Under the pieces are notes generated by a model that was given only the letters and a program-made list of their open reading frames with translations, made no database searches and was not told where the DNA came from. From positions 2,936 to 36,289 of the forward strand of contig JAGWBQ010000021.1 of assembly GCA_021295815.1 (NCBI GenBank): a stretch of 33,354 nt of DNA, read 5' to 3'. Below are positions 3,497 to 15,059 of the stretch, in pieces (within the stretch, counting starts at the first letter, position 1; every line of letters begins with the position of its first letter). Source of the stretch: Gemmatimonadota bacterium. GTDB taxonomy: Bacteria; Gemmatimonadota; Gemmatimonadetes; Longimicrobiales; Gaopeijiaceae. The translations under genes and the position numbers were made by a program.

Positions 3497-4524
3497 TCCG
3501 GGATCGAGCTGACCTGCGCGGCCGACGCTCCCGCGATGATCCCTCAGCCGAGTCGCGCGGAGCCTCCACGCGAACCGTGATGACGTCGGTATCGTGGTAC
3601 TGCCGGTGGCGCACTGACGATGAGAGATGACGGAGCAGGCGCAGAGACACCTCCCGCCCCATGGAAGCTTCGTCGGAGGGTTCTTCGAGCATGGCGATGC
3701 GGTCCTGCAGGTTCTCCTCTCCGGGGGCCACGACGAACTCGAGCACGGCGTCGCCTTTCTCGCCGTGAGCGGCCAGCGCCAGCCGCGGGCGATCTTCGCC
3801 CCGCCCTTCCGTGCAGTCTCTCCCACGCGCCAGCGACAGCAGCGCCTCTTCGGCGACGGAGCCGAGCCGGTCGGCCATCTCCCCGCCCCATACGCTGCGG
3901 GAGGCGAAGTCGCCCAGGAAGGTCCGGATCTTCGGCAGCTCCGAACTTCCGAGGGCTGTTTCGATGCGGTTCGGGCGAGGGTCCGTGAGGCGGAGAAAAA
4001 GGGTTATGAGGATGGCGGTGAAACCGCCGGCGATTACGGCCACCAGCAGAAACGAGGGGAGGAGCGTCCAGAAGGCCGCGCCGAAGCCGAGATCGAGAGC
4101 GGGTGCCTGGATCCGCGGCAGGTCGACCCAGGGCGCCGCTGTGACGCGCTCCAGGTCGTAGAGGCCGCAGGTGGCGGCGATCAGCGAGCCCAGGAGGGCC
4201 GCCCTGGTCGAGCGCCATGATTGAGGTCGGGATGAAGGCCCCGGAAGTGCCCATGACCATCACGTGTCCCATCCCGATGCGTCCGGTGCGCAGCGCCTGC
4301 AGGATGGTCGCCACGCCGCAGACGGCCACCGACGCGAGCACGGCCCAGGAAAGGTATGCGTCGGTCATGCCGGCGGCCCGCATGACCACCATGGGAATCA
4401 GCATCACGGCGGCGATGTTGAGCACCGCGAGTTGCAGGCCGACGCCGAGAGCGAGCCGGCGCGGGGGGGTCTCGTCCGGTTGGTAGCGAGGAGAGGGAGC
4501 TGTGTCTGCGCCCCCGGTGCTCAT
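3441..4524 (-). pseudogene. Decayed NCS2 (xanthine/uracil permease-type) transporter with C-terminal ATPase-like domain
   Basis: The ATG at 4524-4522 overlaps the PKS stop (ATGA). The first 105 or so codons encode two or three membrane segments of an NCS2 (SLC23-like) transporter, including the conserved GHVMVMGTSGAFIP stretch. Near 4200-4220 the sense shifts frame. The new frame gives a short piece (ALLGSLIAATCGLYDLERV) that in the family sits far later, then AAFWTLLPSFLL, and then jumps straight to the last membrane helix (ILITLFLRLT). The cytoplasmic tail after that (LPKIRTFLGDFA to YHDTDVITVRVE) matches the histidine-kinase-ATPase-like tail found on one branch of this family. By my recollection of the family, two internal deletions have removed most of the transport core, one of them causing the frameshift. 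The product cannot be a working carrier. An assembly error is the alternative. Confidence 0.8.

Positions 4525-15059: not shown

What the first reader, a model, noticed from the sequence alone, without database searches (positions are those of the whole stretch)
4521..15059. Bimodular PKS that ends on KS-AT with no second ACP or release domain
The synthase has one complete C-methylating, fully reducing module (KS-AT-DH-cMT-psiKR-ER-KR-ACP, the order of fungal highly reducing PKSs such as LovB) and then a second KS with an intact Cys-His-His set. The protein stops right after the second AT linker. A chain accepted by KS2 has no carrier in cis to be extended on and no thioesterase to free it. 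With no start module, module 1 may run iteratively and KS2 may do one last condensation on a carrier supplied in trans. The frame is open across 10.5 kb, so the odd end is unlikely to be a recent break.
Basis: partly seen in the sequence, partly recalled or inferred. Interest (0 to 1): 0.8.

Follow-up and report, generated by a model that had tools for sequence, protein, structure and literature searches.

The report
PKS ending in chain-handoff station
A giant bacterial enzyme that probably builds methyl-branched chains ends in an odd half-module, and a carrier protein and a likely release enzyme that could complete it are encoded next door in dozens of related bacteria, so the odd end looks like a conserved design and not a broken gene.

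Summary
In detail: one open frame (window 4521-15059, minus) encodes KS-AT-DH-MT-ER-KR-ACP-KS-AT and stops 11 residues after its last YPF motif. The end is conserved: all 47 copies with a readable 3' end (window included) stop 7-19 residues after that motif, in two Gemmatimonadota families and in Acidobacteriota.
Two facts change the interpretation. The second AT is dead: its nucleophile is Gly in 42 of 47, Asp in 4, Ser in 1, and about 58-91 residues around the catalytic His are missing. And the missing parts exist in trans: a free-standing ACP (2230-2475, +) and an alpha/beta hydrolase (2564-3496, +). Of 47 ends, 43 have that ACP and 38 the hydrolase within 4.5 kb. The hydrolase occurs in 33 of 34 family genomes with the PKS and 0 of 87 without.
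KS2 keeps its Cys in 49 of 49 copies but lacks the decarboxylation His in 12. I favour a terminal transfer station: KS2 hands the finished chain to the free ACP, and the hydrolase releases it. A last condensation remains possible. It may be the sponge SUP type; no SupA sequence was available.

The parts
4521..15059 (-). PKS, 3512 aa: KS1-AT1-DH-MT-(psiKR, by position only)-ER-KR-ACP1-KS2-dead AT2
13590..14888 (-). KS1 (C-H-H present)
12366..13205 (-). AT1 (GHSLG, active-type)
11190..12086 (-). DH (His and Asp motifs conserved)
10014..10535 (-). C-methyltransferase
8259..9119 (-). ER
7683..8213 (-). KR with His (H2429) in the column where solved KRs have the catalytic Tyr
7170..7370 (-). ACP1 (DSL, S2592)
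5976..7079 (-). KS2, C2825/H2960/H3000
4725..5387 (-). AT2 remnant: nucleophile Ser replaced by Gly (G3317), catalytic-His segment missing
4524..4724 (-). post-AT linker ending ...YPFQRRRHWFGPAG, then TGA
2230..2475 (+). free-standing ACP (ACP2), attachment Ser S41 (GVSSLD)
2564..3496 (+). alpha/beta hydrolase (Abhydrolase_6), S115/D252/H281; candidate release enzyme
3549..4524 (-). remnant of a permease gene (Xan_ur_permease in a relative) overlapping the PKS stop; two internal deletions and a frame change

Best explanation
Module 1 is a complete C-methylating, fully reducing set with no start module; I infer that it works iteratively and builds a methyl-branched chain on ACP1. The C-terminal KS2 with its dead AT2 is a terminal transfer and docking station. 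KS2's cysteine takes the finished chain from ACP1 and passes it to the separately encoded ACP2, and the neighbouring alpha/beta hydrolase frees it from ACP2, or moves it to an acceptor. AT2 no longer loads anything and survives as scaffold, possibly as the docking face for ACP2. Shown: architecture, conservation, AT2 without its catalytic residues, pairing with ACP2 and hydrolase genes, and selection on KS2, ACP2 and hydrolase. Inferred: iteration, direction of transfer, hydrolase substrate, product.
For: 47 of 47 readable ends stop 7-19 residues after the YPF motif. AT2 nucleophile: 42 Gly, 4 Asp, 1 Ser of 47, and motif spacing 92-125 in all 47 against 183 in the window's AT1. KS2 by alignment column: Cys 49 of 49, second His 49 of 49, first His kept in 37, Asn in 9, Gln in 3; KS1 keeps all three in 40 of 40. 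The His state needs 4 changes on the best KS2 tree (3-5 in bootstraps, 3 forced by starred branches). Pooled dN/dS over seven pairs: KS2 0.10, KS1 0.085, ACP2 0.12, hydrolase 0.13, AT2 0.33, psiKR stretch 0.26; six pairs in which both KS2 copies carry Asn still give KS2 dN/dS 0.08-0.14, so these are not decaying. ACP2 within 4.5 kb of 43 of 47 ends, hydrolase 38, both 37. Hydrolase in 33 of 34 PKS genomes and in 0 of 87 others of the family. Three genomes with tandem PKS genes show an ACP2-hydrolase pair beside each PKS (L089, L091, L097). Precedents: a KS0 acting as a transacylase 'springboard' (PMC8456789, passages), and terminal KS0 before a hydrolase-like domain in algal PKSs, proposed for release (PMC4661987, passages).
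Against: The window's own KS2, and 37 of 49 in all, keep all three catalytic residues, so condensation is chemically possible there. There are no biochemical data. The hydrolase has only a generic Pfam match and no PDB match at E up to 0.001. Ten of 47 ends lack ACP2, hydrolase or both within 4.5 kb; for eight the missing gene was found elsewhere in the genome, but L057 (G026) showed neither and L059 (G016) no ACP2. The shared pairing rests on few independent gains, since most genomes are close relatives. The PKS cut-off (E 1e-180) was set by me after seeing the list, and G005 passes it through a KS1-type fragment only. AlphaFold models were useless (mean pLDDT 33.9 and 32.6).
Confidence: 0.5

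Rival explanations
1. KS2 does one last decarboxylative condensation on malonyl-ACP2, loaded by AT1 or the cell's FabD. The hydrolase frees a beta-keto acid, which could lose CO2 to give a methyl ketone.
For: C-H-H intact in the window and in 37 of 49 KS2 copies; free ACP next door.
Against: AT2 lacks its catalytic residues across the family; the first His is lost in 12 of 49 with Cys kept, and KS2 stays constrained in pairs that lack it, so condensation is unlikely to be the shared function.
Confidence: 0.28
2. Mixed state: KS2 condenses in lineages that keep the His and only transfers in those with Asn or Gln.
For: The residue follows clades.
Against: AT2 is degenerate and ACP2 is present in both kinds; two functional classes were not otherwise looked for.
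Confidence: 0.1
3. KS2-AT2 is only structural (a dimer clamp or leftover of module duplication) with no catalysis.
For: AT2 evolves fastest of the parts measured (dN/dS 0.33) and is truncated.
Against: KS2 is about as constrained as KS1, and its Cys and second His never vary in 49 copies.
Confidence: 0.08
4. ACP2 and hydrolase serve priming or editing: ACP2 brings a starter, or the hydrolase removes stalled chains, and KS2 works toward module 1.
For: No start module is present; free hydrolases often edit (recalled).
Against: KS2 sits after ACP1, the usual downstream acceptor position.
Confidence: 0.03
5. Assembly break or recently truncated gene.
Against: 47 of 47 ends agree, and the contig continues.
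Confidence: 0.005

Closest known systems
SUP (sponge ubiquitous / symbiont ubiquitous) PKS clusters, SupA
   Same: Described as small mono-modular type I PKSs proposed to make mid-chain-branched fatty acids (PMC4245539, Discussion read); a SupE permease belongs to clone pAPKS18 (PMC3908369, table passage), and a permease gene sits beside many copies of this PKS; SUP-like clusters reported in Acidobacteriota MAGs (PMC9426513, passages).
   Different: The passages I saw call it mono-modular and mention no trailing KS-dead AT, free ACP or hydrolase. The original description (Fieseler 2007) is not held, so whether SupA has the same tail is unknown. No SupA sequence was available to compare.
Non-elongating KS0 domains of trans-AT PKSs
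   Same: KS keeps the transacylation Cys; 12 of 49 copies lack the decarboxylation His.
   Different: The window's KS2 keeps the His; this enzyme has its own AT1 in cis, KS2 carries a dead AT and lies beside a free ACP gene.
Terminal KS0 domains of chlorophyte PKSs (PMC4661987, passages)
   Same: Terminal KS proposed for release, next to a hydrolase-like domain.
   Different: In the algae the hydrolase-like domain is fused (given as IPR027417), and the Cys is shifted; here the hydrolase and ACP are separate genes.
Fungal highly reducing PKSs (LovB)
   Different: KS2-AT2 tail; in the PDB search with KS2-AT2, LovB ranks well below bacterial PKSs such as CurL.

Membership tests
SUP PKS (SupA) | KS falls in the SupA sequence clade | not testable with these tools
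   I had no SupA sequence; Fieseler 2007 not held
SUP PKS (SupA) | One methylating, reducing module (methylating domain order of SupA recalled; 'small monomodular' in PMC4245539) | tested here: met
   Pfam domains
SUP PKS (SupA) | Mono-modular, i.e. nothing after ACP | tested here: inconclusive
   KS2-AT2 follows ACP1 here; whether SupA has the same tail could not be read
SUP PKS (SupA) | Permease gene in the cluster | tested here: inconclusive
   Permease beside the PKS in many relatives, Xan_ur_permease in the one scanned, broken in the window; not compared with SupE itself
KS0 (non-elongating KS) | Decarboxylation His of HGTGT lost, Cys kept | tested here: not met
   Window has H2960; 12 of 49 copies meet it
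KS0 (non-elongating KS) | Transfers without elongation | not testable with these tools
   needs biochemistry
Bimodular PKS | Second module with working AT and ACP | tested here: not met
   AT2 nucleophile and catalytic-His segment missing, no second ACP in cis
Fungal highly reducing PKS | Domain order KS-AT-DH-MT-ER-KR-ACP | tested here: met
Fungal highly reducing PKS | Closest sequence relatives fungal | tested here: inconclusive
   Only KS2-AT2 and KR were compared, with PDB chains alone: nearest are bacterial

The most novel reading that the evidence does not exclude
A conserved off-loading device for iterative bacterial PKSs: a C-terminal KS with a degenerate AT used as docking scaffold hands the finished chain to a dedicated free-standing ACP, from which a partner hydrolase releases it. 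It would be a release route distinct from fused thioesterase, reductase or condensation domains, shared by bacteria of at least two phyla and perhaps by the whole SUP group of sponge symbionts.
Probability: 0.4. Interest if true: 0.68.

Novelty: new variant of a known kind. Interest (0 to 1): 0.52.

Why it matters
[quoted passage not shown] the passages I saw give a proposed product but no release step. Naming a free ACP and a hydrolase as the missing parts makes the pathway testable in vitro with three proteins, and it would explain a KS-AT tail that looks like a truncated gene.

Tried and rejected
Truncation or assembly artefact: rejected by 47 conserved ends. "Working second module": rejected by AT2 sequence. 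Structure route: AlphaFold on KS2-AT2 (4 rows) and hydrolase (3 rows) gave mean pLDDT 32.6 and 33.9, so no fold search was run. Hydrolase identity: no PDB sequence match at E up to 0.001; its 51-52% paralogue in G001 lies among genes with sodium symporter, aconitase, aminotransferase and SDR domains, which says nothing about PKS release. Viral contigs: no relative. Literature: searches; I saw their listings, passages of ten papers and one Discussion section, and met no description of this tail; Fieseler 2007 is not held and Hochmuth 2010 was not looked up.

Rows dropped before counts: L038 and L039 (same genomes as L046 and L053), L073 and L075 (the window's genome); L074, L071, L108 lack a readable 3' end; L072 and L106 are split by frameshifts (pieces L072.1 and L106.2 left out of the AT2 table, L072 and L106 KS2 absent from the KS tree); the first PKS copy of L089 was dropped by my scoring rule but is in the KS counts, where KS hits covering fewer than about 370 query residues were left out. 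L043 and L044 are near-identical and both counted.

Full report
Observation. The open frame 4521-15059 (minus, 3512 aa) is intact. Pfam places KS-AT-DH-MT-ER-KR-ACP and then a second KS and AT. The stretch between MT and ER has no Pfam match and is called psiKR by position only. The window is contig C21:2936-36289 of the 2.47-Mb genome G000, so the 3' end of the gene is interior. That the host is a sponge is inference from the SUP literature; no tool showed habitat.

The second AT is dead. AT1 reads GHSLG and AT2 reads GHGIG. Across 47 copies with sequence (window included) the residue is Gly in 42, Asp in 4 and Ser in 1, and in all 47 the distance from this motif to the EIG motif is 92-125 residues against 183 in the window's AT1. 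The missing stretch contains the AT1 catalytic-His segment. Only the front part matches Pfam's AT profile (positions 2-133 of 319). The one copy with Ser (L089, second PKS) has the same deletion (92 residues).

The end is conserved. In 47 of 47 copies with the terminal YPF motif the stop follows 7 to 19 residues later, 11 residues in 38 of them, so none continues into DH, KR or ACP. The copies come from the window's family (34 of 121 genomes have a match at E up to 1e-180; my count from the table, with the cut-off set after seeing the gap between 1e-163 and 4e-220; in G005 the match is a KS1-type fragment and the tail was not seen), from a second family of the class (11 genomes of one genus), and from the Acidobacteriota contig L040 and a genome of its class, G442 (G440 and G441 of that class are cut before the end).

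The missing parts are next door. Window 2230-2475 (+) encodes an 81-aa ACP (PP-binding), and 2564-3496 (+) a 310-aa alpha/beta hydrolase (Abhydrolase_6). In the alignment of 55 ACP2 pieces, 52 have the attachment serine; the other 3 (L051.1, L072.1, L079.2) are out-of-frame pieces of genes whose other piece has it. Of 51 hydrolase rows, the Asp and His motifs are present in 51 and the Ser motif in 50, the remaining one being a gap. Of 47 PKS ends, 43 have this ACP, 38 the hydrolase and 37 both within 4.5 kb; with at least 4.5 kb of flank it is 31 of 39 with both. The ten ends without both: G033 and G114 have an ACP2-hydrolase pair elsewhere in the genome; G023, G024 and G028 have ACP2 beside the PKS and the hydrolase with a permease on another contig; G006, G007 and G031 have ACP2 beside the 3' end and the hydrolase on the 5' side of the PKS; G026 showed neither (its genome search for the hydrolase was negative too), and G016 has the hydrolase but no ACP2 was found. 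Across the 121 family genomes the hydrolase (E up to 1e-20) is found in 33, all of them among the 34 with the PKS; 0 of 87 genomes without the PKS have it. G114 has both while its genus-mates G113 and G115 have neither, and G034 lacks both in genus g3, where the other 22 genomes listed have the PKS. These are few independent events, because most genomes are close kin. In three genomes with tandem PKS genes an ACP2-hydrolase pair accompanies each PKS (L089, L091, L097).

Selection and catalysis. Over seven close pairs (two share a row; one lacks the hydrolase), pooled dN/dS is 0.085 for KS1, 0.102 for KS2, 0.122 for ACP2, 0.128 for the hydrolase, 0.334 for AT2 and 0.258 for the psiKR stretch. 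AT2 is the least constrained part measured, yet not free, which fits a scaffold. KS1 (40 copies) and KS2 (49 copies) form sister clades, separate from 16 other KS domains of the same family's genomes (quick tree), as expected if one duplication preceded the spread. By alignment column KS2 keeps its Cys and second His in 49 of 49; the first, decarboxylation His is His in 37, Asn in 9 and Gln in 3, while KS1 keeps all three in 40 of 40. The state needs four changes on the best KS2 tree (3-5 in bootstraps, 3 forced by starred branches). Six pairs in which both copies carry Asn still show KS2 dN/dS of 0.08-0.14, so these KS2 domains are under constraint. A KS that repeatedly loses this His but never its Cys is expected to transfer and not to elongate; this is the published reading for KS0 domains (PMC8456789 and PMC4661987, passages only).

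Mechanism. Best supported: module 1, presumably iterating, builds a methyl-branched chain on ACP1; KS2 takes it and hands it to ACP2; the hydrolase frees it. Steps not shown: iteration, transfer, hydrolase substrate, product. The rival, a last condensation on malonyl-ACP2, stays open for the window, whose KS2 keeps all three residues, but it is unlikely to be the function shared by the family.

Known systems. The nearest named type is SUP, proposed to make mid-chain-branched fatty acids and described as small and mono-modular (PMC4245539, Discussion read). SUP-like clusters were reported in Chloroflexota, Spirochaetota, Proteobacteria and Acidobacteriota MAGs (PMC9426513, passages); Gemmatimonadota is not named in that list. 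SupE is listed as a permease (PMC3908369, table passage), and a permease gene lies within 4.5 kb of many of these PKS ends. No SupA sequence was at hand, so membership is untested, and whether the KS-AT tail has been described before is unknown to me: ten literature searches (listings and passages seen) gave no description, but the library lacks the original SUP paper.

Negative and unclear results. Structure predictions failed. The hydrolase has no solved relative by sequence. The KR carries His where the five solved KR chains aligned (MAS and AmphB) have Tyr; the constraint on KR, ER and DH (dN/dS 0.13, 0.14, 0.19) argues that reduction still happens, but this is not shown.

Noticed in passing
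window 7683-8213 (-), H2429; same column in relatives: The KR's catalytic Tyr is His in 31 of 31 rows with sequence. A codon pattern for this His form is found in 28 of 117 family genomes, all with the PKS, and the Tyr form in 2 of 117, both without it. Whether such a KR is active, or common elsewhere, was not settled.
   Followed up: partly
window 3549-4524 (-): Permease gene overlapping the PKS stop is a remnant: it matches residues 5-124, 199-261 and 426-586 of an intact 587-aa relative (L045), with a frame change.
   Followed up: yes
window KS1 13590-14888 and KS2 5976-7079: KS1 of the window groups with one clade (with L040, L064, L065, L067-L070) while its KS2 groups with L047, whose KS1 is in the other clade, suggesting recombination between the module and the tail.
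   Followed up: no
L043/L044 versus L042/L045, AT2: AT2 core differs strongly (dN about 0.54, dS 0.51-0.64) although KS2 is nearly identical (dS 0.11-0.13), so a local replacement or compensated frameshifts may have occurred.
   Followed up: no
L089, L091, L097: Tandem PKS genes of this type, each with an ACP2-hydrolase pair.
   Followed up: partly
relatives, e.g. L113 (G018:C20): Many relatives also carry a second PKS, often of about 2,400 aa, with a KS about 35-37% identical, like SwfA in length; G000 shows none. Not compared with SwfA.
   Followed up: no
window 29612-29705 (-): tRNA-Sec gene (anticodon tca) called by ARAGORN.
   Followed up: no
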